Positions 1 to 14,156 of a stretch of 49,824 nt of DNA are shown piece by piece. How positions within the stretch are numbered: the stretch's first letter is position 1; each line of letters opens with the position of its first letter. The stretch is from a virus. The stretch is from the IMG/VR virus record IMGVR_UViG_3300009370_000045, positions 1 to 49,824 of that record. The stretch is one strand, 5' to 3'. The translations under genes were made by a program, and so were the position numbers. Below the pieces are notes generated by a model. It was not told the origin of the DNA. It saw only the letters and a list, made by a program, of their open reading frames with translations, and ran no database searches.

Positions 1-68
1 CTGTTTGCTTGCTAAAGGGCAAGCAAACAGCCTCGCGCACAAGCGGTGCAGGAAAAGGGCAAAAGTCT
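1..68 (+). repeat. Cassette copy 1: hairpin II plus GCACA/AAGG box
   Basis: Bases 1-12 and 19-30 form a perfect 12-bp stem. The box follows at 35-68, with GCACA and AAGG cores. The preceding operon and most of its terminator lie outside the window. Confidence 0.8.
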
Positions 69-79
69 ATAAATAAGGC

Positions 80-107
80 TTGTTATACTTCTAAGCTATG
101 TTATCTT
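80..107 (+). promoter_or_regulatory. Sigma70-type promoter
   Basis: TTGTTA at 80-85 and TATCTT at 102-107 with a 16-base spacer. The leader contains GTTAAGGAACAC, shared with other cassettes. It drives the genes at 145 and 374. Confidence 0.75.
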
Positions 108-144
108 AGGGGCAGTTAAGGAACACTAACCCAAAGGGAGAGTT

Positions 145-369
145 ATGAAAAACAAGTTCTATGTTGAAGCGGGAACACCGGAGGACTTTTTCGCCTATGT
201 CGAAAAGGTAAAAGCGTTGCACAAGGCCAAAGAATGTTTTTGCCAGAAGGAGGAAGAACAGACGGAAGAAGCACAGACGGAAGCGGAAGCCGATGCTGAA
301 TGGGATGAGCATTGGGCCGAGTTGGATGCAGAGCGTGAAGAAAACCAAAATAGAAAGTTGGACGACTAA
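145..369 (+). CDS. Small acidic hypothetical protein
   Basis: A 74-residue protein of unknown function, preceded by AAAGGGAGAG. The N-terminal half is mixed and ends in a Cys pair (CFC); the C-terminal half is strongly acidic. Its end contains EADAEWDEHW followed by DAER, a motif that recurs near the C-terminus of the 98-residue protein at 6439-6735, so the two probably share a tail module. It is first in a two-gene operon with a lysozyme-like gene starting 5 bases downstream. No catalytic motif is visible. Confidence 0.8.
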   Translation: MKNKFYVEAGTPEDFFAYVEKVKALHKAKECFCQKEEEQTEEAQTEAEADAEWDEHWAELDAEREENQNRKLDD

Positions 370-373
370 AATT

Positions 374-862
374 ATGTTCGCAAAAGTAGAACGAGTTATT
401 ACCAAAACAGTACTCATCATTTTCTGGCTTATGTTTGCAATCCTGATGCTTGGGCCTATGTTTCAGGCTTTCGCAGGGGAGAAAAATTACTCTTGGCGTG
501 AAACCTTAGATGCCATCCGAGTAGTCGAAACGGGGGGATGCCCTAATGACGGGATAGGTGCGATAGGGGATGGCGGAAACGCTCTTGGCCCTTATCAGAT
601 CTGGAAGCCCTATTGGATAGACGCAAAGATGAGCTACCACCGGAAGTATTCCGAAGTTCTGAAAGATAAAGAGCTATCCGAAAAAGTAGTTTACAGATAT
701 ATGAAACGCTACCAACCCCAAGCCCTAAAGCGTTTAGAATCTGGAACTGCCAACATTTCAGATGTCGAAAGGGTTGTCAGAACCCATAACGGAGGCCCAA
801 AGGGCTTTCTCCGGAAAGCCACTCTCCCTTACTTTCTCAAAGTAAAACGGGTTATCCGTTAA
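374..862 (+). CDS. Membrane-anchored lysozyme-like protein
   Basis: 162 residues. A single hydrophobic segment (about 9-34) is a signal peptide or signal anchor. The remainder has a lysozyme/transglycosylase look: a likely catalytic Glu at 52 in VVETGG, a GDGG turn near 66-69 and GPYQIWKPYW around 72-81, the pattern of i-type (destabilase) lysozymes and SLT-like enzymes. The inferred role is peptidoglycan cleavage in the periplasm. ATG 374 is chosen over an upstream in-frame start that would run deep into the preceding gene. Its leader resembles the 34-residue protein at 2091. The holin candidate lies 38 kb away, so the role in lysis is uncertain. Confidence 0.75.
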   Translation: MFAKVERVITKTVLIIFWLMFAILMLGPMFQAFAGEKNYSWRETLDAIRVVETGGCPNDGIGAIGDGGNALGPYQIWKPYWIDAKMSYHRKYSEVLKDKELSEKVVYRYMKRYQPQALKRLESGTANISDVERVVRTHNGGPKGFLRKATLPYFLKVKRVIR

Positions 863-895
863 CCTTAACTAGTCCAACAACCTTCTGACAATCTC

Positions 896-928
896 CAGCC
901 TACGGTTCACCCCGTAGGCTGTTTTTTT
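896..928 (+). terminator. Rho-independent terminator
   Basis: Ten-bp stem 896-905/912-921 followed by seven T. The last arm and T-run also form the left arm of the next hairpin. Confidence 0.9.
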
Positions 929-983
929 GTGGAACAAAAAAACAGATCCGCGCACAAGCGGTGCAGAAAAAGGGCAAAAGTCT
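919..983 (+). repeat. Cassette copy 2: hairpin II plus box
   Basis: Stem 919-928/936-945 with loop GTGGAAC overlaps the terminator, so the two hairpins exclude one another. The box is at 950-983. Confidence 0.85.
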
Positions 984-994
984 AAAAATAAGAC

Positions 995-1022
995 TTGTTA
1001 TACTTCTAAGGTCTGTTATAGT
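995..1022 (+). promoter_or_regulatory. Sigma70-type promoter
   Basis: TTGTTA 995-1000, TATAGT 1017-1022, spacer 16. It would start transcripts near 1029, at the first base of a structured leader. Confidence 0.8.
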
Positions 1023-1028
1023 AAGGGC

Positions 1029-1143
1029 AGTTGAGGGTGAGCGACAGGCTTGTCCTCCTGAGTAGCGGTTCGGCTGTGGAAGACCAGCTTAAATATGAAC
1101 TGGCAAAAAGGTATGGCCGTAACTCCTGTATAAGCCCTCAACT
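1029..1143 (+). ncRNA. Candidate structured RNA, closed by a 9-bp stem
   Basis: AGTTGAGGG at 1029-1037 pairs perfectly with CCCTCAACT at 1135-1143, followed by T-rich ATTTTTGATTTTT. Inside are ACAGG/CCTGT and CCAG/CTGG pairings. It begins where the promoter's transcript should begin and holds no convincing reading frame. The RNA family was not recognised. It could be a free-standing sRNA or the first domain of a longer leader. Confidence 0.5.
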
Positions 1144-1154
1144 ATTTTTGATTT

Positions 1155-1391
1155 TTGGAAGGACCAGCGGAGGCATCTGCTGGTGGCGAACCCTGTAGAC
1201 CTGTGGTCGAGACAGGCAGGGGCGACTGGAAAAAATACCTACGGGTACCTCACGCTGATGGCCGAATGGCTGAAGGTGAGGCGGGTCGGCTGGCGGGACA
1301 CACTCTCGGTCAGGAGCCTTGTGAGCAGCGTGAAGACGAAATCTCACCGTCCTACCTTCCTTTTTTACTTCTTCAACAGGAGCTTTGTCAG
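1155..1391 (+). ncRNA. Candidate structured leader RNA
   Basis: About 240 non-coding bases before the gene at 1392, rich in local hairpins: ACCAGC/GCTGGT, CCCTG with an inner CCTGT/ACAGG, CCTCAC/GTGAGG and GTGA/TCAC. The frame that stays open through it gives an atypical composition (many Gly, Arg, Glu) and has no good ribosome site at its start. The family is unknown. Confidence 0.4.
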
Positions 1392-1643
1392 ATGAAGGTA
1401 CATAAATTCGTACTAAAGAAGAGAGTTGAAAAGGAACGGTATATAGAAATCGAAACAGAAGATAACTATGACCACCAAGCCCTTAACGCTCTTTTGTGGA
1501 ATCAAGTCAACCTTTTAGATTCTGAATCTGAGGAAGTTCGGAATTGGAAATCAGGCGTAGTAATGGATTTCATCGATACTACGCTGCCCCGATGGGATTT
1601 AGATGAAGATAGTTACGAAGTCGAAACAAAGAAAGAGGATTAG
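1392..1643 (+). CDS. Small acidic hypothetical protein
   Basis: 83 residues; function not recognised. ATG 1392 follows AGGAG at a 9-base distance, and the predicted protein changes from odd to normal composition exactly here. The sequence is charged throughout and acidic in the last 20 residues, with a single helix-rich central part (ALNALLWNQVNLL). It is probably co-translated with the next frame, which begins at its stop codon. It has a long structured leader upstream. Confidence 0.75.
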   Translation: MKVHKFVLKKRVEKERYIEIETEDNYDHQALNALLWNQVNLLDSESEEVRNWKSGVVMDFIDTTLPRWDLDEDSYEVETKKED

Positions 1644-1900
1644 TTTTCAAAAAGAAGAAAGCAACATTCCCCAACGGTGTAGATCATTTCTACGGCCCCT
1701 ATTTTGTCGCACTGATAGGCGACCCCTGCCACGGATTCGAAGTTCACGGCCCCTACGATAGCTACGAGGAAGCCGAAGCAGATGCAGACGGGCAAGATCA
1801 CTGGGTCTTAGAGCTAAAAGGTCCTTCTGCTTTTTGTGGTTCTCTCCTGAAAGATAGAGAAGCTATTCGCGCCTTGCTCCCGCCTGAAACAGAAGAGTAG
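1643..1900 (+). CDS. Small hypothetical protein lacking a standard start codon
   Basis: An open frame of about 85 codons ending TAG at 1898. The peptide looks real: a core reading FYGPYFVALIGDPC, then HGPYDSYEEAEADADG. After the upstream stop at 1610 there is no ATG, GTG or TTG in frame before the conserved part, although AGAGGA at 1634-1639 could be a ribosome site. Possible explanations are a non-standard start such as GTT at 1643, a -1 frameshift from the preceding gene, or a sequence error. The assigned start is a guess; the frame is fairly secure. Confidence 0.55.
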   Translation, partial: VFKKKKATFPNGVDHFYGPYFVALIGDPCHGFEVHGPYDSYEEAEADADGQDHWVLELKGPSAFCGSLLKDREAIRALLPPETEE

Positions 1901-1920
1901 ACCAGAACAGGATTCTAAAA

Positions 1921-1949
1921 ACAGCCTTCGGTTCTCCCGAAGGCTGTTT
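1921..1949 (+). terminator. Terminator
   Basis: Eleven-bp stem 1921-1931/1937-1947, with only a short T-run interrupted by G. Confidence 0.75.
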
Positions 1950-2010
1950 GCTTTCCTTCGTCAAGCAAACAGCCATCCGCACAAGCGGTAAAGCAAAAGG
2001 GCAAAAGTCT
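1944..2010 (+). repeat. Cassette copy 3: hairpin II plus box
   Basis: Stem 1944-1953/1963-1972 overlaps the terminator's right arm. The box is at 1977-2010. Confidence 0.85.
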
Positions 2011-2021
2011 AAAAATAAGGC

Positions 2022-2049
2022 TTGTTATACTTCTAAGGTCTGTTAGGAT
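2022..2049 (+). promoter_or_regulatory. Sigma70-type promoter
   Basis: TTGTTA 2022-2027, TAGGAT 2044-2049, spacer 16. It is followed by the shared leader GTTAAGGAACACCAACC. Confidence 0.75.
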
Positions 2050-2090
2050 ACAGGGAGTTAAGGAACACCAACCTAAAGGGAGGGCTTCGG

Positions 2091-2195
2091 ATGTCCAAGT
2101 TTGAAAGAGTCATCGTCTACATAATGGCCGTTCTGTTCGCAATCGTAATGCTCGGTCCTTTTGTCCAGTACTTCATCAACAGGTGGGAGCTTTAA
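2091..2195 (+). CDS. 34-residue membrane microprotein
   Basis: One transmembrane segment (about 7-29) followed by NRWEL. It starts after AAAGGGAGGG (about 10 bases). It strongly resembles the leader of the lysozyme-like protein at 374: both read ERVI, a variable stretch, FAI, one residue, MLGP, then Q and F. It may be a truncated copy of that gene, or a membrane partner such as an antiholin or regulator of the lysozyme. It is the first of three genes; its stop is one base from the next start. Confidence 0.7.
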   Translation: MSKFERVIVYIMAVLFAIVMLGPFVQYFINRWEL

Positions 2196-2196
2196 G

Positions 2197-2403
2197 ATGT
2201 TCAAGGAAGGACAGAAAGTATATTTCAAAAAGCCGTACCGAATGTTCACAGGGATATTCGGAGATGGGGAGGTTTCGATAGTACGGCATGATGAAATACA
2301 GGTAATGATGGGGGAAGGGACTAAAGCCTACTGTGGCAAGTTCTTTCCGGTTGAAGAGCTAAAGGAACTGACAAGGGAACCGGTAGGGAGGGAGCCAAGA
2401 TGA
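2197..2403 (+). CDS. Hypothetical protein, 68 residues
   Basis: Function not recognised. ATG 2197 follows GGTGGGAG, which lies inside the end of the preceding gene, so translation is probably coupled. The alternating hydrophobic/charged pattern (KVYFKKPYRMFTG, EVSIVRHDEIQVMM) suggests a small beta-barrel. The stop overlaps the next start as ATGA. Confidence 0.7.
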   Translation: MFKEGQKVYFKKPYRMFTGIFGDGEVSIVRHDEIQVMMGEGTKAYCGKFFPVEELKELTREPVGREPR

Positions 2404-2744
2404 AGATTGAGAAACCTAAACTGGAACACGGAAGCACCGAGCATAAGAAAATCATTTGCGAGGCTATTGACTTAGAGGCGGACATTCAGAAAGTAGAAAA
2501 AAGGCTCAAAGAGCTAAAAGACATCCACAAGGCTCTTATGGAACCCGTTCACGATTTGAATAATTACGAACGCTGGAAACAGGAACTGTGGAATCATTGG
2601 ATGATCCTTGGGGAAGAGGAACGGGTAGAACTCACCCTTAACCCCGCTTACAGCTTCAAGCACTTTATGAATCTGTATCCTGAACAAGCTAAAAAGGCCC
2701 ACCCAGATCGGTTCAAGGATAAAGAGACTCACAAGTACTCCTGA
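2400..2744 (+). CDS. Hypothetical protein with N-terminal coiled coil
   Basis: 114 residues. Residues about 15-50 have heptad character (AIDLEADIQKVEKRLKELKD), followed by a Trp-rich stretch (RWKQELWNHW) and a basic C-terminus. No enzyme motif is visible. It overlaps the preceding gene by 4 bases and is last in its operon. Confidence 0.75.
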   Translation: MKIEKPKLEHGSTEHKKIICEAIDLEADIQKVEKRLKELKDIHKALMEPVHDLNNYERWKQELWNHWMILGEEERVELTLNPAYSFKHFMNLYPEQAKKAHPDRFKDKETHKYS

Positions 2745-2750
2745 AAACTA

Positions 2751-2786
2751 AACCCATTCTACGGTTCAGACGTAGAATGGGTTTTT
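2751..2786 (+). terminator. Rho-independent terminator
   Basis: Thirteen-bp stem 2751-2763/2771-2783 with five T. Confidence 0.9.
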
Positions 2787-2841
2787 GTGTAACAAAAACC
2801 CATACCGCTGCACAACTGGTTTTGCGGAAGGGCGAAGATCT
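2777..2841 (+). repeat. Cassette copy 4: hairpin II plus box
   Basis: Stem 2777-2787/2793-2803, sharing the terminator's T-run. The loop region is a variant, GTGTAAC. The box is at 2805-2841. Confidence 0.85.
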
Positions 2842-2851
2842 AAAAAAGAGC

Positions 2852-2879
2852 TTGTTTAGTTCGTAAGAACTGTTATAAT
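2852..2879 (+). promoter_or_regulatory. Sigma70-type promoter
   Basis: TTGTTT 2852-2857, TATAAT 2874-2879, spacer 16. The spacer contains the dyad AGTTC-GTAA-GAACT, a possible operator. Confidence 0.8.
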
Positions 2880-2916
2880 CCTAATATGAATCAAGTTAAG
2901 ACCACAGGAGGGAAAA

Positions 2917-3306
2917 TTGTTACAAGATACTGTCAGAATAAATCTGCAGGGCCGTAAAGAAGATACAGAGATCAGCTTTACACCGGAAGAATGGCGACCG
3001 CTTACTACTTTAATGATCGAACATTGCCCTTGGCCTAAAGAATTAAACAGGAGAACAGTTAATGAGATCTGCAGCGGAGTATGCGAAGGCTATTCAGAAC
3101 AAGACGAATGTGAGTGGGTAGCGGATGCTTTGGAACTTGCAATACATAAAATTGAACCGAGAAGAGCCGAAAAAGAGGATGTGGAAATCTTCTCTCATCC
3201 GGTACTGCGTAACGGCGAAACATTAGAGTGCAAAATCCATATCACAAAACTAAACGAGTTCATCTCATTTTTGAGAGAGTGCAACGGCTTTAAATTAAAT
3301 ATGTAG
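2917..3306 (+). CDS. Hypothetical protein, divergent relative of the gene at 3705
   Basis: 129 residues, TTG start after AGGAGGG at about 5 bases; the nearby ATG at 2886 is in another frame. Landmarks shared with the 173-residue protein at 3705 are EEWRPL near the N-terminus, ECEWVADALE in the middle, and FLRECNGF at the end (FLRKCGGF there). It is therefore probably a shortened, diverged paralog of that common phage family of unknown function. The initiator tRNA follows 6 bases after its stop, presumably on the same transcript. Confidence 0.75.
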   Translation: MLQDTVRINLQGRKEDTEISFTPEEWRPLTTLMIEHCPWPKELNRRTVNEICSGVCEGYSEQDECEWVADALELAIHKIEPRRAEKEDVEIFSHPVLRNGETLECKIHITKLNEFISFLRECNGFKLNM

Positions 3307-3312
3307 AAATAT

Positions 3313-3389
<77 letters not shown>

Positions 3390-3395
3390 ATACAT

Positions 3396-3475
3396 AGCCA
3401 GAGGGCGGGGGTACACCGCCACTACCTGCGAACGGTAGCTCTGACAGCGTTTGTATCAAGGTTCAGACTCTGGCT
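3396..3475 (+). ncRNA. tRNA-like structured RNA after the tRNA
   Basis: AGCCAGA at 3396-3402 pairs with TCTGGCT at 3469-3475, followed by five T. Inside are GGCGG/CCGCC and CTACC/GGTAG, the latter with a 7-base loop, and a longer TCTGA/TCAGA arm. The layout copies a cloverleaf, but the anticodon-like loop lacks U33 and no CCA follows. It could be a decayed tRNA, a mimic, or a branched terminator. Confidence 0.5.
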
Positions 3476-3534
3476 TTTTAATCCACGGACTGTGCAAGCC
3501 CCACTGCAGGGGTATAGAGCTTGGCCAGTCTACG

Positions 3535-3565
3535 CAGCCTACGGTTAACCCCGTAGGCTGTTTTT
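3535..3565 (+). terminator. Rho-independent terminator
   Basis: Ten-bp stem 3535-3544/3551-3560 plus five T. Confidence 0.9.
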
Positions 3566-3622
3566 CTGTGGAACAGAAAAACAGGTCTCCGCACAGGCGA
3601 TTGTGCAGAAGGGCAAAAGTCT
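3558..3622 (+). repeat. Cassette copy 5: hairpin II plus box
   Basis: Stem 3558-3568/3574-3584, with the GTGGAAC motif at the loop. The box is at 3588-3622. Confidence 0.85.
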
Positions 3623-3632
3623 AAAATAAGGC

Positions 3633-3660
3633 TTGTTATACTTCTAATGTCTGTTAGGAT
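3633..3660 (+). promoter_or_regulatory. Sigma70-type promoter
   Basis: TTGTTA 3633-3638, TAGGAT 3655-3660, spacer 16. It drives the genes 3705-4809. Confidence 0.75.
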
Positions 3661-3704
3661 ACAGGGAGTTAAGGGACGGCAACCAAAAACAGGAGGAAGT
3701 AGAA

Positions 3705-4226
3705 ATGGGATTTGATGTATACGGTAGAGAGCCAATTGTAGACAGCCCGAAGCCTACTAAGCCTGACAATTGGGACGAGATGTCAGGAGAAGAGCAGTAT
3801 GAGTGGAGAAAGAAATACATCTTTCCGTGGCAAGAGAAAAACCCCGGCGATTACTTCCGAGCATCGATGTGGTCGTGGCGACCTCTTTGGGAAATCATGG
3901 AAAAGACATGCAGCAGCATTTTGGGCGAAGAAATGCTATCGTCCCTTTGCTACAACGATGGGGCAGGTCCGGAAGATCAGGCTACTTGCGACGAAATGGC
4001 CGATGCTATTGTGGAGTTCCTACAGGATTCCGAATGGTTAGGGAAAAGCGGATATACCATTTCTTCAAACTGCCGAGTCAAGCAGAACGGCGAGTTGGTT
4101 TGTCTTTCAGAACTGGACGATGAAAAGCTCTGGCATGAAACCCGAAGTGCCTACGGGATAGAGATAAGTCATATCCTTGAGTGGTGTCGATTCCTTAGAA
4201 AGTGCGGAGGGTTTCAGGCGTGGTAA
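3705..4226 (+). CDS. Conserved phage protein of unknown function (MGFDVYG family)
   Basis: 173 residues after a strong AGGAGG site. It opens with MGFDVYG and has GDYFRASMWSWRPLW near 50, a Cys-containing centre (CYNDGAGPE, ATCDEMADAI) and ends in EWCRFLRKCGGFQAW. From recall, this set of landmarks is common in small proteins of tailed phages, with no function established. A short relative lies at 2917. The end overlaps the start of the next gene. Confidence 0.8.
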   Translation: MGFDVYGREPIVDSPKPTKPDNWDEMSGEEQYEWRKKYIFPWQEKNPGDYFRASMWSWRPLWEIMEKTCSSILGEEMLSSLCYNDGAGPEDQATCDEMADAIVEFLQDSEWLGKSGYTISSNCRVKQNGELVCLSELDDEKLWHETRSAYGIEISHILEWCRFLRKCGGFQAW

Positions 4227-4519
4227 TTGACAAGTACAGGGCACAAGAACATCGGCTTTCATTTCGATTTCGAGGCCTGACCTTTGCGATTTTCAACGGC
4301 TGCGTCAACTGGCATGTCTACAGGCTCCGCAAAGGCGGGATAAGCGGGAAGAGGTCTCAGTATGTACATGATTTCTGGAAAGCTGGTTATGATCTCAGGG
4401 ACATGGACGGAAGAGATACCAACGAAGATCTACTGAGGAAAGCCAAGGAGCTTGTGGGTCTTTGGTACGACTTCGACAAAGGCAGAACAAGCAACTGTTC
4501 AAACAGGGAGGAATGGTAA
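4220..4519 (+). CDS. Hypothetical protein
   Basis: 99 residues from GTG 4220, placed 9 bases after GGAGG and overlapping the preceding stop. An earlier in-frame GTG at 4202 is possible but would lie before that site. The N-terminal half is basic with aromatic residues (RLSFRFRGLTFAIFNGCVNW); the second half is helical and charged. Function not recognised. Confidence 0.65.
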   Translation: MVIDKYRAQEHRLSFRFRGLTFAIFNGCVNWHVYRLRKGGISGKRSQYVHDFWKAGYDLRDMDGRDTNEDLLRKAKELVGLWYDFDKGRTSNCSNREEW

Positions 4520-4809
4520 TGCTTTACGACGAATTCAGAGATGAAGACATACAGACATTAGGCGTAGGCGTGGCTGCTGTAGCAGAAGAGATTTTTAAAA
4601 TCTGTGCAGGCCCAAAGGAAGAACGGGAGGACTTGAGCCACATGGATTATGACTTTTGCGTACAAGAAATACATTGGGACTGGGCTTGTTTCGGAAGCAC
4701 TAACCGCCTGATGTGGAGACCCGCTACAGGGTGGTCTATATCAGAGTCCCATTGCACGGAACGATTCATCCGAAGGTTTAAAGAACTCGATCTTTCAAAA
4801 CTGATTTAA
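4519..4809 (+). CDS. Hypothetical protein
   Basis: 96 residues. The start overlaps the preceding stop (TAATG) about 8 bases after AGGGAGGA; a second ATG two codons earlier is also usable. There is an acidic N-terminal helix, a Trp-containing centre (IHWDWACFG) and a C-terminal helix. Function not recognised. Last protein gene of its operon. Confidence 0.7.
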   Translation: MLYDEFRDEDIQTLGVGVAAVAEEIFKICAGPKEEREDLSHMDYDFCVQEIHWDWACFGSTNRLMWRPATGWSISESHCTERFIRRFKELDLSKLI

Positions 4810-4879
4810 GAAACAGGGCTAAACGGGCTTGCGACTTCCTATATAGTTAAGAATTGATGTAAATCCTAAAAACAAAGTA

Positions 4880-4997
4880 TGCGGTACTGGTGCTTCCTCG
4901 GTCGGTAGAGTTTTCTGGTAACGCTGAAACCTTTTAGAAGGTATTTAATCGCTTGAGACATCCTTTGCGGATAAATAGAAAGACCGATTTCTACCGC
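4880..4997 (+). ncRNA. Candidate structured RNA in operon 3' region
   Basis: Nested pairings GCGGTA 4880-4885 with TACCGC 4992-4997, and TCGGTC 4897-4902 with GACCGA 4982-4987. Inside lie two small hairpins, ACCTT/AAGGT at 4928-4941 and ATCC/GGAT at 4959-4971. The 210 bases between the gene end at 4809 and the terminator hold no credible gene. Confidence 0.4.
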
Positions 4998-5018
4998 AAT
5001 TAAGTTTATCCCCATTTC

Positions 5019-5050
5019 AACAGCCTACGGTTCACACCGTAGGCTGTTTC
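5019..5050 (+). terminator. Terminator
   Basis: Twelve-bp stem 5019-5030/5037-5048, with a short T-run. Confidence 0.8.
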
Positions 5051-5108
5051 CTTGTCTGACAAGGAAACAGAGTTCCGCACATGTGGCGCGGGAAAAGGGC
5101 GAAAGTCT
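5044..5108 (+). repeat. Cassette copy 6: hairpin II plus box
   Basis: Twelve-bp stem 5044-5055/5059-5070 with loop CTG. The box is at 5073-5108. Confidence 0.85.
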
Positions 5109-5109
5109 G

Positions 5110-5137
5110 TTGACAATGTCACCGTTAGGTCTATAAT
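5110..5137 (+). promoter_or_regulatory. Consensus sigma70 promoter
   Basis: TTGACA 5110-5115, TATAAT 5132-5137, spacer 16: one of the strongest promoters in the window. Confidence 0.9.
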
Positions 5138-5173
5138 GATACTTATAAGTATCATATTAATGGGAGAGAAGAG

Positions 5174-5890: not shown

Positions 5891-5910
5891 GATCTCTTCA
5901 CTTCTATGTT

Positions 5911-5947
5911 CAGCCTATGCCGTAGCCCTACGGCGTAGGCTGTTTTT
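5911..5947 (+). terminator. Rho-independent terminator
   Basis: Twelve-base arms 5911-5922/5931-5942 with one weak pair, then five T. Confidence 0.85.
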
Positions 5948-6004
5948 CTGTGGAACAGAAAAACAGCGTCTCGCACATGCACTTCGCGTAAAGGGCAGAA
6001 ATCT
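5940..6004 (+). repeat. Cassette copy 7: hairpin II plus box
   Basis: Stem 5940-5950/5956-5966 with GTGGAAC at the loop. The box is at 5970-6004. Confidence 0.85.
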
Positions 6005-6015
6005 AAAAATAAGGG

Positions 6016-6043
6016 TTGTTATCTTTCTAAGTTCTGTTAGACT
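6016..6043 (+). promoter_or_regulatory. Sigma70-type promoter
   Basis: TTGTTA 6016-6021, TAGACT 6038-6043, spacer 16, then the shared leader GTTAAGGAACACCAACC. Confidence 0.75.
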
Positions 6044-6083
6044 ACAGGAAGTTAAGGAACACCAACCGCAACCGGAGGAAGTT

Positions 6084-7269: not shown

Positions 7270-7288
7270 CGACTTCCTCCGAAGTCAA

Positions 7289-7322
7289 GAACAGCCCAGT
7301 CATACCCGTCTGGGCTGTTCGT
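7289..7322 (+). terminator. Terminator
   Basis: Eleven-bp stem 7289-7299/7310-7320 but almost no T-run, so its strength is uncertain. Confidence 0.65.
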
Positions 7323-7378
7323 CTGTCTGACAGACGAACAGCGTTCCGCACAAGTGCTTCCGCATAAAGGCGAAGTCC
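7315..7378 (+). repeat. Cassette copy 8: hairpin II plus box
   Basis: Twelve-bp stem 7315-7326/7330-7341, loop CTG. The box is at 7345-7378. Confidence 0.85.
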
Positions 7379-7405
7379 TGTTCTAAAAAAAGGCCCAGTT
7401 TTCAA

Positions 7406-7433
7406 TTGCACTAATAATCGTGAGCTATATACT
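7406..7433 (+). promoter_or_regulatory. Sigma70-type promoter
   Basis: TTGCAC 7406-7411, TATACT 7428-7433, spacer 16. Confidence 0.7.
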
Positions 7434-7468
7434 AATCCTAACGGCACAAGAAAGGAGGCGAAAACCGA

Positions 7469-8626: not shown

Positions 8627-8634
8627 ACGGTATC

Positions 8635-8667
8635 GCCCCCCACCGGAAACGGTGGGGGGCTTTTTTT
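8635..8667 (+). terminator. Strong rho-independent terminator
   Basis: Eleven-bp GC-rich stem 8635-8645/8650-8660, GAAA tetraloop, seven T. Confidence 0.95.
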
Positions 8668-8692
8668 AAATACAATCCGGTTATGAAAATTC

Positions 8693-8755
8693 CTGCTTTT
8701 TTGTGAACAAAAAAGCAGTCTCTCGCACAAGCGATTCGTTGAAAAGGCGTAACTC
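8693..8755 (+). repeat. Cassette copy 9: hairpin II plus box
   Basis: Stem 8693-8703/8708-8718, here separate from the terminator. The box is at 8720-8755. No convincing sigma70 promoter follows it before the gene at 8788. Confidence 0.8.
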
Positions 8756-8787
8756 TTTAACCCATTTTACTGAAAGGATTTTTATCC

Positions 8788-8985
8788 ATGGCTGATGTAG
8801 CTGAACAAAAACCCAAGTATCTAAATATAGGACTGCCCGCAGAACTGCACTTGGCTTTCAAAACTAAGTGCGTTTCAAACGGTCAGTATGTAGGAGATAC
8901 TCTTACCGCCCTCATGGCAATGTACTGCTCTGGAGAAGCGGACGACGCCGTCGCGAAGTATCTCCAGAAAAAGAAGAGTGACTAG
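8788..8985 (+). CDS. Possible ribbon-helix-helix DNA-binding protein
   Basis: 65 residues. KYLNIGLPAELHLAFKTKC could be the strand plus first helix of a CopG/Arc-type fold, followed by a second helix (YVGDTLTALMAMYC) and a basic end. If so, it would bind DNA as a dimer and may regulate this region. The assignment rests on pattern only. It overlaps the nuclease gene by 8 bases. Confidence 0.55.
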   Translation: MADVAEQKPKYLNIGLPAELHLAFKTKCVSNGQYVGDTLTALMAMYCSGEADDAVAKYLQKKKSD

Positions 8986-9250: not shown

Positions 9251-9255
9251 TAAAA

Positions 9256-9293
9256 AACCGCACCGAAGAAGGACTCCTCGGTGCGGTTATTTT
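9256..9293 (+). terminator. Rho-independent terminator
   Basis: Eleven-bp stem 9256-9266/9278-9288 then ATTTT. Unlike most plus-strand operon ends, no box follows. Confidence 0.85.
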
Positions 9294-9362
9294 GAGTCAG
9301 GGAATACTCAGATATTAACCCTAAGAAACTCTCGACCCTAACGAAAAATATCTTTATTTCGC

Positions 9363-9402
9363 TTGACCTTATCTTGCTAACGATTATAATAACTTATCGT
9401 TA
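9363..9402 (+). promoter_or_regulatory. Sigma70 promoter with dyad over the -10
   Basis: TTGACC 9363-9368, TATAAT 9385-9390, spacer 16. TAACGAT 9378-9384 and ATCGTTA 9396-9402 form an inverted repeat flanking the -10, a plausible operator. Confidence 0.85.
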
Positions 9403-9425
9403 ACAACAACTCATGGGAGGTACTG

Positions 9426-9851
9426 ATGAATACATTTGTTGGGTCTACTAAAGAAGCTCACGAAACGATGAGTAACTTGCTGCGTGAGCAAGGTGAGACT
9501 GAGAAGGGTGAGATACTCGCCCGTCTGATGTCCGATTACATGTGCAACGGTCGGAACACAATGGCAATGGATGGATTCGTTGACTATTGGGCCAGTGAAC
9601 ACCGGACCATCCAACAGTCTTTTACCATGCTGGTTCTGCATTGGATTCGTTCTCTTTACCAGAAAGAGAAAGAGGGTCTGTTCGATTTGCGTAACGCCTA
9701 CTCGGTTGGATTCGCAAAAGGTGTTGTCGATTGTCTTAAAGACTACGATTACAAGTACGGAGAAGGTGAGCGAATGGTTCAGTATCTCTACGATTTCAAT
9801 CTGAATGATCGCTTTGACGAAGACCGTGTCATCGAATTCCCTCTGGTATAA
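9426..9851 (+). CDS. Hypothetical protein
   Basis: 141 residues after GGGAGG. The composition suggests an all-helical soluble protein with many charged residues and several Trp/Tyr (FVDYWASEHRTIQQSF, LHWIRSLYQKEKEG). Function not recognised. First of three genes controlled by the promoter at 9363; the next gene starts 11 bases after its stop. Confidence 0.75.
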   Translation: MNTFVGSTKEAHETMSNLLREQGETEKGEILARLMSDYMCNGRNTMAMDGFVDYWASEHRTIQQSFTMLVLHWIRSLYQKEKEGLFDLRNAYSVGFAKGVVDCLKDYDYKYGEGERMVQYLYDFNLNDRFDEDRVIEFPLV

Positions 9852-9862
9852 GGAAGAGAACA

Positions 9863-10540
9863 ATGCCTAACTGGTGCAGCAACGACCTAACAGTAACCGG
9901 ACCCAAGGAAGAAATAGAGAGATGGGTAGAATTCTCTACTGGGCTTCCTCCAAAGTACAAACCTTCTAAGTTAGAAGAAGAGATCTTTGGGAAGCCTCTT
10001 AAGAATGAAAAAGAAGAACCTGAGATCCTAAACTTTCATTCTATCTGCCCCATTCCTCAACTAACTCTCGACTTCGGGTTTGACCACGGATATGTGGAAG
10101 ACGCTGACGGTAACAGGAAACCGCCAGAGGGTTCTCCAGAATGTGGGTACGACGCTCAATGCAGATTGTGGGGAACGAAGTGGCCTGCCTGTGAAGTTTC
10201 GGTAACCACCCCAGAGACTTGTACAAGCTGGAGTCCAGTTATGGAAAGTGAAGACCATTCTTGGATTTCTTATAACTTCGATACAGCTTGGTCCCCACCA
10301 GAACCTCTTGTTCGAGCAGCAGCCCTTTTGTTTCCTGATTGTATTTTCAATCTGACTTTCACAGGAGAAGGGTACGAGTTCAAAGGGCAATTGATGCTCA
10401 AGAACTCTTTAGAACTTGTGAGTGAAACAAGGAAAGGAACATTCTCAGATATGGTTTCTGACTCGGACGAACACACGGCGTGGGATATGTTCGGAATCAG
10501 CGATATGTTAGAGGAACACAAAGGAGTAAAAAATGGATAA
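9863..10540 (+). CDS. Api92/YubB-like ferredoxin-fold protein
   Basis: 225 residues. It begins MPNWCSNDLTVTGPKEEI, the signature opening of the Api92/YubB (DUF1281) family, whose N-terminal domain is ferredoxin-like. The family's later block is present as LWGTKWPACEVSV and SYNFDTAWSPPEPLV. These proteins occur on plasmids and phages without a settled function. The end overlaps the next gene by 8 bases. Confidence 0.85.
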   Translation: MPNWCSNDLTVTGPKEEIERWVEFSTGLPPKYKPSKLEEEIFGKPLKNEKEEPEILNFHSICPIPQLTLDFGFDHGYVEDADGNRKPPEGSPECGYDAQCRLWGTKWPACEVSVTTPETCTSWSPVMESEDHSWISYNFDTAWSPPEPLVRAAALLFPDCIFNLTFTGEGYEFKGQLMLKNSLELVSETRKGTFSDMVSDSDEHTAWDMFGISDMLEEHKGVKNG

Positions 10541-10724
10541 GAAAACACAATGGACAGTATGGGTAGAAGGCGTCCCTATGAATTTAGATACTGAACCTTC
10601 TACACAGGAAGAGATTCTGGAATTCGCCCAGACGAGATTTCACCCCCAACCCGCTTTATTTTTCAAAGGTGATAAACACCCGCTTGATATTAAAGTAACT
10701 CCGGGGCATAGTTCTGAAGAGTAA
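10533..10724 (+). CDS. Hypothetical protein, 63 residues
   Basis: ATG 10533 overlaps the preceding gene by 8 bases; AAAGGAG lies just upstream. QWTVWVEGVPMNLDTEPS followed by a helix and more strands suggests a small alpha/beta domain. Function not recognised. Last protein gene of its operon. Confidence 0.7.
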   Translation: MDKKTQWTVWVEGVPMNLDTEPSTQEEILEFAQTRFHPQPALFFKGDKHPLDIKVTPGHSSEE

Positions 10725-10732
10725 AAGCTACG

Positions 10733-10827
10733 GTGCTTCTAAAAGGGAGTATTAGCACTAATCTTCACTTCACAGTTCAGAGGTCCGACCCCTCCCATTG
10801 GTTGGTTAACGATCTTTTCCTCTGAAC
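10733..10827 (+). ncRNA. Candidate structured 3' region
   Basis: Two inverted repeats: GTGCT 10733-10737 with AGCAC 10754-10758, and GTTCAGAGG 10775-10783 with CCTCTGAAC 10819-10827. They lie between the last gene and the terminator. No gene is visible here. Confidence 0.35.
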
Positions 10828-10833
10828 GCCCTT

Positions 10834-10866
10834 GGGAGCCAGTATTCACTTCTGGCTCCCATTTTT
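10834..10866 (+). terminator. Rho-independent terminator
   Basis: Nine-bp stem 10834-10842/10852-10860 then ATTTTT. Confidence 0.9.
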
Positions 10867-10879
10867 AATTCCCCCGTTA

Positions 10880-10946
10880 AATGGTCGGCTGTGGAACAGC
10901 CGACCATTCTCCCCGCACAACCGGTTGCACAAAAAGGCGCGGGTCT
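10880..10946 (+). repeat. Cassette copy 10: hairpin II plus box
   Basis: Twelve-bp stem 10880-10891/10897-10908 with GTGGAAC at the loop, separate from the terminator. The box is at 10911-10946. Confidence 0.85.
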
Positions 10947-10958
10947 GTAAAAAAGGGT

Positions 10959-10986
10959 TTGACATTAGTTACCTAACGACTATAAT
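10959..10986 (+). promoter_or_regulatory. Consensus sigma70 promoter
   Basis: TTGACA 10959-10964, TATAAT 10981-10986, spacer 16 ending in TAACGAC. It is almost the same as the minus-strand promoter at 13662-13689, so both may answer to one regulator. Confidence 0.9.
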
Positions 10987-11022
10987 ACTAATTCAACCTA
11001 TCTCTTAGAAAGGAGACACGAT

Positions 11023-11244
11023 ATGGGACAGCCTTGCTTTAGTGAGGATGAAGTAGAAGAAATGAGGGTCGAGTGCTACAGGCATTGGGTCGCTCATCAC
11101 GGTACACCAAGCAGCATACGTGCAGCAGCGTGGGACGGATGCTTCGACGAGTTTCCGAAATACGGATGGAAGGATGCCGAGGACGAACTCGTTATCGAGT
11201 ATTACGTCAGGCACGTTACCAGAGGGGCGGTGAAGTCATCTTAA
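11023..11244 (+). CDS. Hypothetical protein
   Basis: 73 residues after AAAGGAGA. Helical, acidic at both ends, with HWVAHHGTPSSIRAAAWDGC in the centre. Function not recognised. It opens an operon of seven very small genes (11023-12362), most joined by ATGA or TAATG overlaps. Confidence 0.7.
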   Translation: MGQPCFSEDEVEEMRVECYRHWVAHHGTPSSIRAAAWDGCFDEFPKYGWKDAEDELVIEYYVRHVTRGAVKSS

Positions 11245-11267
11245 AGTACAAAAAAGCAGGGGAGAGA

Positions 11268-11435
11268 ATGACCTTGGTTCATCTTCTCCGAGAAATGAAC
11301 GACATGCTTACTCATTGCATGGAAGGCGAAGAGGTTGTTAATTGTTACAACAACATCATGATGGACCAGATCGAATATGTTGGCGACGACATGTTCCGCA
11401 AGGTAACCGATGGACACGGTGGGGAGGTGGACTAA
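11268..11435 (+). CDS. Hypothetical protein, 55 residues
   Basis: ATG 11268 follows AGGGGAG closely. The sequence is helical with several Met and two Cys (LLREMNDMLTHCMEGEEVVNC). The stop overlaps the next start (TAATG). Function not recognised. Confidence 0.6.
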   Translation: MTLVHLLREMNDMLTHCMEGEEVVNCYNNIMMDQIEYVGDDMFRKVTDGHGGEVD

Positions 11436-11641
11436 TGCCAAGACGACCTTCCCGCAACCAACAGAAAATGATCGGCTGTGACTGTCTTCTCGAATTGTTC
11501 GTCGCTAAATTTAAGAACTACGACGAAGCCGAGGTGATGGGGTACGGAGAAATCTACCCTGCAATAGTAGACTGGCTGGCCGATCACGGCGTTATGGACC
11601 ACGACGAATTAGAAGTTCTACTGGAGGGATACTATGGTTGA
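11435..11641 (+). CDS. Hypothetical protein, 68 residues
   Basis: It starts on the preceding stop after GGGGAGG. The N-terminus is basic (MPRRPSRNQQK), then helical, ending in AIVDWLADHGVMDHDELEVLL. That DWLADH stretch resembles CGWLADHDHLG in the next gene, so the two may be diverged duplicates. Confidence 0.65.
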   Translation: MPRRPSRNQQKMIGCDCLLELFVAKFKNYDEAEVMGYGEIYPAIVDWLADHGVMDHDELEVLLEGYYG

Positions 11642-11822
11642 TGAGGTTTACGGAGAGAAACGAATAAATGGAAGTAAAGACCTCTACGACAGGGTATGCG
11701 GTTGGTTGGCTGACCACGACCACCTTGGTTCTCCAGAAGCCGAGAAGACAGGGGGTATGTTGATGGAAGAAGCTGAGTGGCTGTTAGGAGACATTTACAA
11801 GAGTTGCGGAGGTGTGGAATGA
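11634..11822 (+). CDS. Hypothetical protein, 62 residues
   Basis: Overlaps the previous gene by 8 bases and the next by 4. It contains LYDRVCGWLADHDHLG and an acidic EEAEWLLGDIYKSC end. The WLADH motif is shared with the upstream neighbour. Function not recognised. Confidence 0.65.
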   Translation: MVDEVYGEKRINGSKDLYDRVCGWLADHDHLGSPEAEKTGGMLMEEAEWLLGDIYKSCGGVE

Positions 11823-11995
11823 ATAGTGTCCATAGGAAAGTTATTAAGTTTGCGTATCTCGACTTAGACGGAGCGATCCGCTATTGGGAAGGAAAAGATA
11901 GACTTTCCGCCGAAGAGCAGGAGTTGATGGGAGCTTACTTAGCTACCTGTAAGGATTTAGTAGAACAGTTTCCCTTTTTAGGAGAAGACAAATGA
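11819..11995 (+). CDS. Hypothetical protein, 58 residues
   Basis: ATGA overlap with the previous gene; GGAGG is about 8 bases upstream. Helical with IKFAYLDLDGAIRYWEGKDRLS. Function not recognised. Confidence 0.65.
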   Translation: MNSVHRKVIKFAYLDLDGAIRYWEGKDRLSAEEQELMGAYLATCKDLVEQFPFLGEDK

Positions 11996-12174
11996 AGCTA
12001 ACGACGACTGAGAAAACAAATATAAGATTACTAATCGTCGATACCCTGCTTCGAGATTTGTACAACGATTGGATGACAATGGTGGAACAGGATATAGAAG
12101 ACGGGAATGAGGACACCAATAAGCTATATGTCAGGTGTAGAAGGTACTTCGAGGATAACGGGATAACAACATGA
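11992..12174 (+). CDS. Hypothetical protein, 60 residues
   Basis: ATGA overlaps at both ends, with AGGAG upstream. Helical and acidic (IVDTLLRDLYNDWMTMVEQDIEDG). Function not recognised. Confidence 0.65.
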   Translation: MKLTTTEKTNIRLLIVDTLLRDLYNDWMTMVEQDIEDGNEDTNKLYVRCRRYFEDNGITT

Positions 12175-12362
12175 AGAAGTTTAGAATCCAAATAGTAGAA
12201 ACTACAGACTATGTAGTAGAAGCAGAAAGTGAAAGTGAAGCCTATGACTTCGTTCACAACTGCGGAATGGGCGAGAGGAGAACCCAAACAACCTCTACTT
12301 CTGGAATCTGGGAAATGTCAGAAGATGGTCAATGGATTAAGTATCCCGGAGTAACGAACTAA
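12171..12362 (+). CDS. Small protein with VEAESESEA strand-helix motif
   Basis: 63 residues, last gene of the operon. FRIQIVETTDYVVEAESESEAYDFV is the pattern of small phage proteins in which a beta-strand ends in VEA-SEEEA before a helix; a similar stretch occurs in the minus-strand protein at 13154. The function of such proteins is unknown. Confidence 0.7.
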   Translation: MKKFRIQIVETTDYVVEAESESEAYDFVHNCGMGERRTQTTSTSGIWEMSEDGQWIKYPGVTN

Positions 12363-12377
12363 CGTCTTCTTTCTACT

Positions 12378-12410
12378 GGCCGGGCGCGTCCCAAAGCGCG
12401 TCCGGCCTTT
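12378..12410 (+). terminator. Terminator of the plus-strand region
   Basis: Eleven-base GC-rich arms 12378-12388/12397-12407 with one wobble, then TTT. It marks where plus- and minus-strand transcription meet. Confidence 0.85.
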
Positions 12411-12424
12411 TCAGTTCTAAACGC

Positions 12425-12491
12425 AATTGGGCGGCTGTGGAACAGCCGCCCAATTTTCTAGCACAACCCCTTCGCATAAAAGGCAGAGGTC
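12425..12491 (+). repeat. Cassette copy 11: hairpin II plus box, no promoter after it
   Basis: Thirteen-bp stem 12425-12437/12443-12455 with GTGGAAC at the loop. The box at 12458-12491 touches the stop of the convergent gene at 12490. No plus-strand gene or promoter follows. Confidence 0.8.
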
Positions 12492-12966
12492 AGAACGGTA
12501 AACTCATACCTGTTGCCGATGGGATATGGCTTGTACTATCCAGAAATGAATCGCAGTCAATCCAGTGCGCCGTAATGCCGTTCTCAATGCTCATACTAAT
12601 GAAGTCTGCCTTGTAAACAAAACACTCGGACGCACCGCAATGATCTTTCTCAGCGAAAAACTGCCCGTGCTTATACGGGTTATACGAGACTACTTTATCT
12701 ATCATCTCCGGGTAACTCCCAGAATCTAAATTTAGCGTCAGCGTGGGCGTCCCCTGCACGAACGCATGGACGTTTTTCCTCTTTTCCTTGAGGACTTTTT
12801 CCCTACCAGCTTGCGAAACAACGAACGTAACTTCTTCAAGGCATAACTCCGTAACGTGGTCTATGACACGATTGTATCTCGGGCTTTTAGAATCGAAATC
12901 TCGGACGGACCAGCAGTCCAAGTGAAGGTTCCGATATACTCTTACTCTTGAGGCGGTACTTTTCAT
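12490..12966 (-). CDS. Conserved phage hypothetical protein
   Basis: 158 residues; ATG 12966 overlaps the preceding stop as TAATG, with GGAG upstream. An early RVRVYRNLHLDCWSVRD block is followed by RVIDHVTELCLEEVTFVVS, AGREKVLKEKRKNVHAFVQG. From recall, this combination (especially KNVHAFV-G) is common in small phage proteins without known function. Last of four minus-strand genes from the promoter at 13662-13689. Confidence 0.75.
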   Translation of the reverse strand: MKSTASRVRVYRNLHLDCWSVRDFDSKSPRYNRVIDHVTELCLEEVTFVVSQAGREKVLKEKRKNVHAFVQGTPTLTLNLDSGSYPEMIDKVVSYNPYKHGQFFAEKDHCGASECFVYKADFISMSIENGITAHWIDCDSFLDSTSHIPSATGMSLPF

Positions 12967-13154
12967 TAGTCTGCTTCTCCAGCGTGGGAGTAGGAATCGC
13001 AATGCCCGAAGCAATCAGTCGATTCATTCGATCCAACGATATCGGCAATACGCTCTAGCAATCCTGCGATAAGCACTTCCCTCGGAACTTCGTATGCGTC
13101 TTCCACCTCGGTATCAATGGAAAACGCTATGTCGTACATGTGGTTGTATTTCAT
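12966..13154 (-). CDS. Conserved small phage protein
   Basis: 62 residues; ATG 13154 lies on the preceding stop with GAGGAG just upstream. NHMYDIAFSIDTEVEDAYEV and PREVLIAGLLERI are landmarks of a small phage protein family of unknown function. The end has a Cys pair (DCFGHCDSY). Confidence 0.75.
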   Translation of the reverse strand: MKYNHMYDIAFSIDTEVEDAYEVPREVLIAGLLERIADIVGSNESTDCFGHCDSYSHAGEAD

Positions 13155-13339
13155 TACTGCTCCTCTGCCCACACTTCGTCTTTGTTACAGTCGTAACCGT
13201 CCCATTCTGAGGAACTGGCTATCTCGACAGCCTCTTCTTCTGAAGCCGCCTCTACTATCTTGTATTGGACTTCTTGGCTGAAAACGCAGTAGGTTTTCAG
13301 TTTCTTCGGCTCTACATTCTTTGCCGTACCTTCTTGCAT
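13154..13339 (-). CDS. Small protein with VEAASEEEA motif
   Basis: 61 residues after AAAGGAGAG. The central YKIVEAASEEEAVEIA is the strand-helix unit also seen in the plus-strand protein at 12171. An acidic Trp-containing C-terminus follows. Function unknown; located 12 bases after the first gene of this operon. Confidence 0.7.
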   Translation of the reverse strand: MQEGTAKNVEPKKLKTYCVFSQEVQYKIVEAASEEEAVEIASSSEWDGYDCNKDEVWAEEQ

Positions 13340-13351
13340 ATCTCTCTCCTT

Positions 13352-13630
13352 TCAACTATTGAAAAACAACTCGCCGGAACCCCACACCTTGGGAGCCTCC
13401 ATAGCGGGTATTTCGACAGGAATCATATCTCCGTTAATAAGCCCAAGGTGATACTTCATGGACACTTTACTAAACGCCGCTGCCAGAGACTCGATGAGGT
13501 CGGGCCTCTCTACTGCGCCTTGGATAGGTGTTGAAGTAAGAGCGATACGGAGTTCACCCTTAGCGATTCTCTCTGCCAGTTCTTCAGGCAGTTGAGCCAG
13601 TACTTCTACGCTGCGATATTCGCCAGCCAT
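13352..13630 (-). CDS. Hypothetical protein
   Basis: 92 residues after AAAGGAGG. VEVLAQLPEELAERIAKGELRIAL and LIESLAAAFSKVSMKYHLGLI suggest helices around a short strand segment. Function not recognised. First gene of the four-gene minus-strand operon. Confidence 0.7.
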   Translation of the reverse strand: MAGEYRSVEVLAQLPEELAERIAKGELRIALTSTPIQGAVERPDLIESLAAAFSKVSMKYHLGLINGDMIPVEIPAMEAPKVWGSGELFFNS

Positions 13631-13661
13631 TCCGTGCCTCCTTTCTTAAGGTTGATAGGTC

Positions 13662-13689
13662 ATTATAGTCGTTACCTACCTAATGTCAA
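13662..13689 (-). promoter_or_regulatory. Consensus sigma70 promoter, minus strand
   Basis: On the minus strand TTGACA (13684-13689) and TATAAT (13662-13667) with spacer 16. The spacer differs from that of the promoter at 10959 at only a few positions. Confidence 0.9.
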
Positions 13690-13851
13690 AGGGTTACCGG
13701 AGAAATTATGAAAATTTTAGAAATTATGAAAAAGTAACGCCGTCGCACCTCATGGCCCTCTGTCAGAATTCCGAGTAATCAAAACCACTTCCCCTTTTAA
13801 AAACTGAACGGAGTTGGTTTATGAAATGTAAACTATAAACTACATAACGCC

Positions 13852-13939
13852 GTCGCGTGGTGGACACCGCGACGTAGTAAACTCGCACCTCCGTCGCACG
13901 GCGGTCTCGCACAATTTGTTAGGGCAAAAGGCGTAGGTC
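13852..13939 (+). repeat. Cassette copy 12: hairpin plus box, promoterless
   Basis: A GC-rich hairpin at 13852-13873 (GTCGCG/CGCGAC outer arms) and the box at 13903-13939 (GCACAATTTG, AAAAGGCGTAGGTCC). Confidence 0.7.
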
Positions 13940-13957
13940 CGTCAACCACGTAACAAC

Positions 13958-14042
13958 GCCGCGCTGTCTCACAGCGCGGCAGTTTCGCCCTGAACTCGCA
14001 CAGCGTGTCCGCACAATTTGTTTGAGTAAAAGGCGTAGGCCC
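13958..14042 (+). repeat. Cassette copy 13: hairpin plus box, promoterless
   Basis: Perfect 10-bp stem 13958-13967/13971-13980, loop CTC; the box follows at 14007-14042 and is nearly the same as copy 12. Confidence 0.75.
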
Positions 14043-14060
14043 GTCCGCCAAAAACGTCAA

Positions 14061-14137
14061 GTGGCTAAAGTTTAGCCACGTAACCAAGTCAAGATGGGCC
14101 CGCACAATTAGTGGGCAGGAAAGGCGTAGGGGAGTCC
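14061..14137 (+). repeat. Cassette copy 14: hairpin plus box, promoterless
   Basis: Nine-bp stem 14061-14069/14071-14079; the box is at 14097-14137, diverged at its right end. Confidence 0.7.
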
Positions 14138-14156
14138 AACAATGGCGAAATCGTCG

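What the first reader, a model, noticed from the sequence alone, without database searches (positions are those of the whole stretch)
1..14137. A 14-copy hairpin/GCACA-AAGG cassette separates early operons
Fourteen boxes, all on the plus strand, lie at 35, 950, 1977, 2805, 3588, 5073, 5970, 7345, 8720, 10911, 12458, 13903, 14007 and 14097. All contain GCACA and AAGG about 12-18 bases apart. A perfect 9-13 bp hairpin precedes each, directly or within about 30 bases. Stem sequences differ freely but remain paired, which is covariation and argues for selection on structure. The order terminator, hairpin II, box, promoter, leader recalls the PeSL cassettes of T4-type phages (established), but the box is additional and here also occurs without promoters. 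It may be a structured RNA, a replication or recombination signal, or a protein-binding site.
Basis: partly seen in the sequence, partly recalled or inferred. Interest (0 to 1): 0.88.

Follow-up and report, generated by a model that had tools for sequence, protein, structure and literature searches.

The report
Phage hairpin-plus-box intergenic control element
An otherwise unknown phage carries fourteen same-direction copies of a 33-letter sequence box, eleven of them sitting exactly 5-6 bases after a hairpin whose sequence changes but whose pairing is always kept; it is a real, apparently undescribed control element, most likely a landing site for a phage regulator, but what it does is not yet shown.

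Summary
All 14 boxes are real, on the + strand, in non-coding DNA of the rightward early region. They align without gaps over about 33 nt: YC-GCACAA-N11-RAARGGC-RNRRGTCYR. They score 29.8-50.6 bits; the next best site in the window scores 8.4. In copies 1-11 a 10-14 bp hairpin ends exactly 6 nt (once 5) before GCACA. Seven of its 12 pairs change on both sides with pairing kept in every cell; the apex (TGT/ACA) and foot (TG/CA) are fixed. Copies 12-14 lack this adjacent hairpin, so 'a hairpin precedes each' is only partly right. The box itself shows no covariation. The order terminator, hairpin, box, promoter holds for copies 2-8 and 10. Copies 9 and 11-14 have no sigma70 promoter, and two sigma70 promoters have no box, so box and promoter are separate parts. 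No second genome carrying it was found in IMG/VR, GTDB representatives, GenBank phages or PLSDB. Best reading, at moderate confidence: a directional DNA site for a phage-encoded regulator of the rightward early domain, working like L5 stoperators, coupled to a structure-selected hairpin. A promoter for a phage polymerase or sigma factor is the main rival. Mechanism and partner protein are inferred.

The parts
37..69 (+). box copy 1
   Evidence: 50.6 bits
1..30 (+). hairpin II of copy 1 (12 bp, 6-nt loop); contig starts here
80..107 (+). sigma70-like promoter TTGTTA-16-TATCTT after copy 1
   Evidence: score 9.6 (background 95% = 9.4)
896..921 (+). terminator stem (hairpin I) before copy 2
919..945 (+). 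hairpin II of copy 2, overlaps the terminator end and T-tract
952..984 (+). box copy 2
995..1022 (+). promoter TTGTTA-16-TATAGT
1919..1949 (+). terminator before copy 3
1944..1972 (+). hairpin II of copy 3 (10 bp, 9-nt loop)
1979..2011 (+). box copy 3
2022..2049 (+). promoter TTGTTA-16-TAGGAT
   Evidence: score 9.1, inside background range
2750..2784 (+). terminator before copy 4
2777..2803 (+). hairpin II of copy 4
2810..2842 (+). box copy 4
2852..2879 (+). promoter TTGTTT-16-TATAAT
3535..3560 (+). terminator before copy 5
3558..3584 (+). hairpin II of copy 5
3591..3623 (+). box copy 5
3633..3660 (+). promoter TTGTTA-16-TAGGAT
   Evidence: score 9.1, inside background range
5019..5048 (+). 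terminator before copy 6
5044..5070 (+). hairpin II of copy 6
5077..5109 (+). box copy 6, abuts the -35 hexamer
5110..5137 (+). promoter TTGACA-16-TATAAT
5911..5942 (+). terminator before copy 7
5940..5966 (+). hairpin II of copy 7
5973..6005 (+). box copy 7
6016..6043 (+). promoter TTGTTA-16-TAGACT
   Evidence: score 9.7
7289..7320 (+). terminator-like stem before copy 8
7315..7341 (+). hairpin II of copy 8
7348..7380 (+). box copy 8
7406..7433 (+). weak promoter candidate TTGCAC-16-TATACT
   Evidence: score 9.3, inside background range
8635..8660 (+). strong terminator before copy 9 (32 nt from hairpin II)
8693..8718 (+). hairpin II of copy 9
8725..8757 (+). box copy 9, no sigma70 promoter above background
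8788..8985 (+). small protein with weak ParG (ribbon-helix-helix) similarity, first gene after copy 9; untested candidate box-binding protein
   Evidence: E 0.28; E 0.0024, below cut-off; structure prediction uninformative
10833..10861 (+). terminator before copy 10
10880..10908 (+). hairpin II of copy 10
10915..10947 (+). box copy 10
10959..10986 (+). promoter TTGACA-16-TATAAT
12378..12407 (+). terminator before copy 11
12425..12455 (+). hairpin II of copy 11 (14 bp)
12461..12493 (+). box copy 11, between convergent operons, no promoter
13909..13941 (+). box copy 12, in non-coding region
13958..13980 (+). 10-bp hairpin with TGT-CTC-ACA apex, 30 nt before copy 13
14011..14043 (+). box copy 13
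14060..14078 (+). hairpin GTGGCTAAAGTTTAGCCAC, 23 nt before copy 14
   Evidence: sequence
14102..14134 (+). box copy 14

Best explanation
The box is a directional binding site on double-stranded DNA for a phage-encoded regulator of the rightward early gene domain. The protein reads GCACAA and AARGGC...GTC on one face of the helix. Bound next to a promoter it changes initiation; bound behind a terminator, at the convergent junction (copy 11), or in the three-copy cluster at the domain's right edge (copies 12-14), it acts on elongating polymerase or on the origin-like region. This is how operators and stoperators of L5-type mycobacteriophages work. The palindrome 6 nt upstream is a second module, selected to be able to fold and read mainly at its fixed TGT/ACA apex and TG/CA foot, probably as an extruded DNA hairpin that helps assemble or orient the complex. 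Shown here: the sites, their direction, fixed geometry, hairpin pairing, and independence from promoters. Inferred: that a protein binds, that it is phage-encoded, that DNA rather than RNA is the acting form, and the regulatory outcome.
For: Ungapped, asymmetric, bipartite box with no internal covariation and conservation peaks about 9.5-10 bp apart (column-shuffle p about 0.003-0.007, optimistic because neighbouring columns are not independent). All 14 in one direction, non-coding, only in the rightward early domain. Boxes stay 45-73% identical between diverged copies whose downstream DNA is random at 17-45%. Present with and without promoters. Hairpin pairing kept through changes in 7 of 12 pairs, always 5-6 nt from the box. 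135 Watson-Crick pairs and 1 G-T among the 11 stems, and GNA triloops (GGA or GTA) in 6 of 11, the loop type used on the N4 promoter template strand. Copies 2-11 lie behind terminators, so terminated transcripts would not contain the hairpin. Published parallel: L5-type repressor sites are asymmetric, occur in promoters and short intergenic spaces, and follow the direction of transcription (PMC9283540).
Against: No regulator is identified; the ParG-like gene after copy 9 is only a weak hit. Stoperators have no hairpin. Copies 12-14 lack the adjacent hairpin and do not sit in rightward genes. Gene 8788, after copy 9, has a strong terminator behind it and no clear sigma70 promoter, which a pure operator does not explain. 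The DNA-versus-RNA argument from G-T pairs is weak, because the neighbouring terminators also have few.
Confidence: 0.4

Rival explanations
1. Promoter for a phage-encoded RNA polymerase or sigma factor (middle class), placed in tandem with sigma70 early promoters, with the hairpin extruded as in N4 virion-polymerase promoters, and used at the origin-like region to prime replication.
For: All boxes point with the genes they precede; copy 9 precedes a gene with no other visible promoter behind a strong terminator; copies 12-14 lie in an iteron-rich non-coding region; N4 stems likewise mix conserved and free-but-paired positions with a 3-nt loop; HF2 class I intergenic repeats, also confined to early-middle genes, proved to be promoters.
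Against: The middle of the box (7-17) is mostly free, unlike T7-type promoters; arms are 12 bp and the conserved box lies beyond the hairpin, unlike N4; copy 11 would drive antisense of a convergent operon; no polymerase or sigma gene seen, though the contig is incomplete.
Confidence: 0.22
2. PeSL-like mobile regulatory cassette: the repeated hairpin-box-promoter header is homology or a recombination site by which early gene modules are shuffled.
For: Headers of copies 1, 2, 3, 7 (and in part 5) are paralogous far beyond the box; operons form a same-direction array of small genes; PeSLs are reported to mediate module shuffling in T4-like phages.
Against: The box is kept in copies whose flanks are unrelated and in copies without hairpin or promoter, which homology alone does not require; no second genome to show shuffling.
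Confidence: 0.13
3. RNA element acting in read-through transcripts (processing, antitermination or protein-binding RNA).
For: Hairpin covariation; the strand is always that of rightward transcripts.
Against: Lies downstream of terminators and upstream of the next promoter, so most transcripts would not contain it; the box has no RNA covariation; no Rfam family above threshold; copies 12-14 are outside any known rightward unit.
Confidence: 0.12
4. Replication or segregation site (dispersed origin-type or centromere-type repeats).
For: Three copies in a 1-kb non-coding region with GTTACGNCGTAAC-like palindromes; ParG-like small protein after copy 9 and an actin-like partition-family hit at 32631-33674.
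Against: Eleven copies are tied to operon boundaries; the partition hits are weak and not linked to each other.
Confidence: 0.1

Closest known systems
Operators and stoperators of L5-type (cluster A) mycobacteriophages
   Same: Many dispersed asymmetric sites, in promoters and short intergenic spaces, oriented with transcription (PMC9283540).
   Different: Site here is about 33 nt, not a 13-mer; coupled to a covarying hairpin; no repressor identified; not an identified actinophage.
PeSL elements of T4-type phages
   Same: Terminator stem-loop plus early promoter between early gene modules (cited in PMC4503421; primary papers not held).
   Different: Extra hairpin and box; box also without promoter; nothing T4-like seen.
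N4 virion RNA polymerase promoters
   Same: Hairpin with 3-nt loop, fixed and free-but-paired stem positions (PMC4496689).
   Different: 12-bp arms; conserved block beyond the hairpin; many copies; tandem sigma70 promoters.
Halovirus HF2 class I intergenic repeats
   Same: About 58-bp repeats between genes of the early-middle region (PMC8707807).
   Different: Archaeal TATA-type promoters; no adjoining covarying hairpin at each copy.

Membership tests
T4-type PeSL | terminator stem-loop followed by early promoter between genes | tested here: met
   copies 2-8 and 10, with weak promoters at 3, 5, 8; not copies 9, 11-14
T4-type PeSL | occurs in T4-like myoviruses | tested here: not met
   MCP matches phrog_283/267 and actinophage-type heads at about 30%; TerL matches general families; no T4-like match among the proteins tested
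T4-type PeSL | module shuffling between related phages | not testable with these tools
   no related genome with the element found
Stoperator | asymmetric site, intergenic, oriented with transcription | tested here: met
   14 of 14 on + strand in the rightward domain; copies 11-14 have no rightward gene behind them
Stoperator | bound by a two-domain phage repressor | not testable with these tools
   no candidate of that family seen in the window; contig incomplete
N4 vRNAP promoter | hairpin of 5-7 bp with conserved sequence -17 to +1 | tested here: not met
   12-bp arms, conserved box 6-39 nt beyond the hairpin
N4 vRNAP promoter | giant virion RNA polymerase gene | tested here: inconclusive
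   not in the 49.8-kb record, which is a fragment
lambda nut / HK022 put RNA sites | transcribed between promoter and terminator | tested here: not met
   element lies after the terminator and before the next promoter
any Rfam family | score above gathering threshold | tested here: not met
   only the tRNA matched

The most novel reading that the evidence does not exclude
A new kind of phage control element in which a DNA hairpin, selected for pairing and read by its apex and foot, is coupled at fixed spacing to an asymmetric 33-bp recognition sequence, used by an unknown phage protein or polymerase to run a whole early domain.
Probability: 0.25. Interest if true: 0.8.

Novelty: new variant of a known kind. 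Interest (0 to 1): 0.55.

Why it matters
Structure-dependent DNA control sites in double-stranded DNA phages are rare (N4 is the classic case). An element with fourteen natural variants, exact geometry and paired compensatory changes makes it possible to test directly whether DNA hairpins are read in an early regulatory programme, and to fish out the protein that reads them.

Tried and rejected
Box as an internal RNA fold: no column pair or helix stood out among 1176 pairs, and short predicted hairpins differ between copies. Box as an upstream activating sequence for sigma70 promoters only: rejected because copies 9 and 11-14 lack promoters while promoters at 9363(+) and 13689(-) lack boxes; offsets to -35 are 42-44 nt in seven copies, 33 and 58 in the others. 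nut/put antitermination: wrong place relative to promoter and terminator. Hairpin II as antiterminator: its 3' arm is made only after the T-tract. Relatives: close-relative scans with TerL and the DUF932 protein found none; a distant MCP scan gave 80 loci, nearly all at 36% identity or less, none with a box; DNA patterns gave only single hits, in number about as expected by chance or none; the one GTDB hit showed no matching hairpin; blastn gave only short matches at E of about 1 or worse or none. Generic search for similar hairpin families in fetched loci found nothing of this kind. AlphaFold of the ParG-like protein without alignment was uninformative (pLDDT 55).
Full report
WHAT IS THERE. 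The window is a 49,824-base virus record, taken to be a fragment. Rightward small genes fill about 0.1-12.4 kb, a leftward early operon lies at 13.6-12.5 kb, and leftward structural genes run from 49.8 to 14.7 kb. GCACA boxes start at 37, 952, 1979, 2810, 3591, 5077, 5973, 7348, 8725, 10915, 12461, 13909, 14011 and 14102, all on the + strand. They align without gaps: GCACAA at 1-6, T at 11 (13 of 14), AARGGC at 19-24, A at 27, TC at 30-31. PWM scores over 40 nt are 33.8-50.6 bits (29.8-45.0 with the shorter 35-nt matrix); the next site in the whole window scores 8.4. Box identity between diverged copies is about 45-73%, while the DNA just downstream is at 17-45% except among the paralogous headers of copies 1, 2, 3, 7 and partly 5. 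So the box is kept for its own sake.

THE HAIRPIN. In copies 1-11 a palindrome of 10-14 pairs ends 6 nt (copy 11: 5 nt) before GCACA. In nine alignable copies, all 108 pair cells are paired; 7 of 12 pairs carry changes on both sides (23 cells), and no shuffle of 500 reached the covariation score; sliding the partner breaks it. Pairs 2-3 (TG/CA) and 10-12 (TGT/ACA) never vary. The structure was read off these same sequences and the copies are paralogues, so these counts support selection for pairing but are not independent events. Perfect stems of 11 bp or more with loops up to 10 occur 13 times in the window, all in the first 14.2 kb, against 0-1 in shuffles; these are hairpin II copies and the terminators near them. 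In copies 2-8 hairpin II shares its 5' arm with the end and T-tract of the preceding terminator; in copies 9-11 it stands apart. Thus hairpin II is not a by-product of the terminator. Copies 12-14 lack it next to the box.

WHAT THE BOX DEPENDS ON. Sigma70-like promoters follow copies 1-8 and 10, at 42-44 nt from box start to -35 in seven, 33 in copy 6 and 58 in copy 8; several are weak (copies 3, 5 and 8 fall inside the background range, 95% point 9.4). Copies 9 and 11-14 score 4.5-8.1 (background median 6.1). Strong promoters at 9363(+) and 13689(-) have no box. Box and promoter are therefore separate.

RNA OR DNA. The box has no covariation and its conservation peaks are spaced about 9.5-10 bp, as for a protein lying on one face of the helix; the column-shuffle p of 0.003-0.007 is optimistic. 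The hairpin must be able to pair in one strand. Because it lies behind terminators, terminated RNA cannot contain it whole. 135 Watson-Crick to 1 G-T pairs and GNA triloops in six of eleven copies lean towards DNA, but weakly. This is inference.

MECHANISM. I favour a directional DNA site for a phage regulator of the rightward domain with an associated DNA hairpin (0.4). It explains direction, place behind terminators and before promoters, the convergent copy 11 and the cluster at the right edge. It does not explain how gene 8788 is expressed; a phage polymerase or sigma promoter (0.22) does, and is the main rival. The gene after copy 9 has weak ParG resemblance and is a candidate partner only by position.

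COMPARISON AND NOVELTY. It works most like operators/stoperators and resembles PeSLs in layout, N4 promoters in hairpin logic and HF2 repeats in being intergenic repeats of the early-middle region, but fails at least one defining feature of PeSL and N4 promoters, and stoperator membership cannot be tested without the repressor. No other genome carrying it was found in IMG/VR, GTDB representatives, INPHARED or PLSDB with the searches used. Those searches need near-consensus matches, records very near this genome may be left out by the tools, and metagenome contigs could not be scanned, so absence is not proven.

Noticed in passing
window 13690-14735, also 21194-21265, 22842-22866, 23130-23155: Palindromic GTTACGNCGTAAC-like sites (20 in the window with up to 2 mismatches against 1.7 expected) and CACGTGGTTACG repeats, partly clustered in non-coding DNA; possibly an origin or a second control element of the leftward genes.
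   Followed up: partly
window 9378-9390(+), 10974-10986(+), 13662-13674(-): Three strong sigma70 promoters share TAACGAYTATAAT over the -10 (0.07 expected), suggesting a second regulator site.
   Followed up: partly
window 114-131, 2056-2073, 3667-3684, 6050-6067: Conserved leader AGTTAAGGAACACCAACC after the copy 1, 3, 5 and 7 promoters (0.08 expected).
   Followed up: partly
window 1026-1145 and 1155-1375: Long non-coding leader behind copy 2 with a 10-bp closing helix in the predicted fold; overall folding z only -1.3.
   Followed up: partly
window 4810-5050: Non-coding stretch that folds better than shuffles (z -2.96, includes the terminator); possible small RNA.
   Followed up: partly
window 3313-3389: Single tRNA-Met (CAT) gene between early genes, 86-95% identical to stretches of unannotated gut phage records.
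   Followed up: no
window 32631-33674 (-): Partition-family (phrog_691) protein beside the large terminase gene.
   Followed up: no
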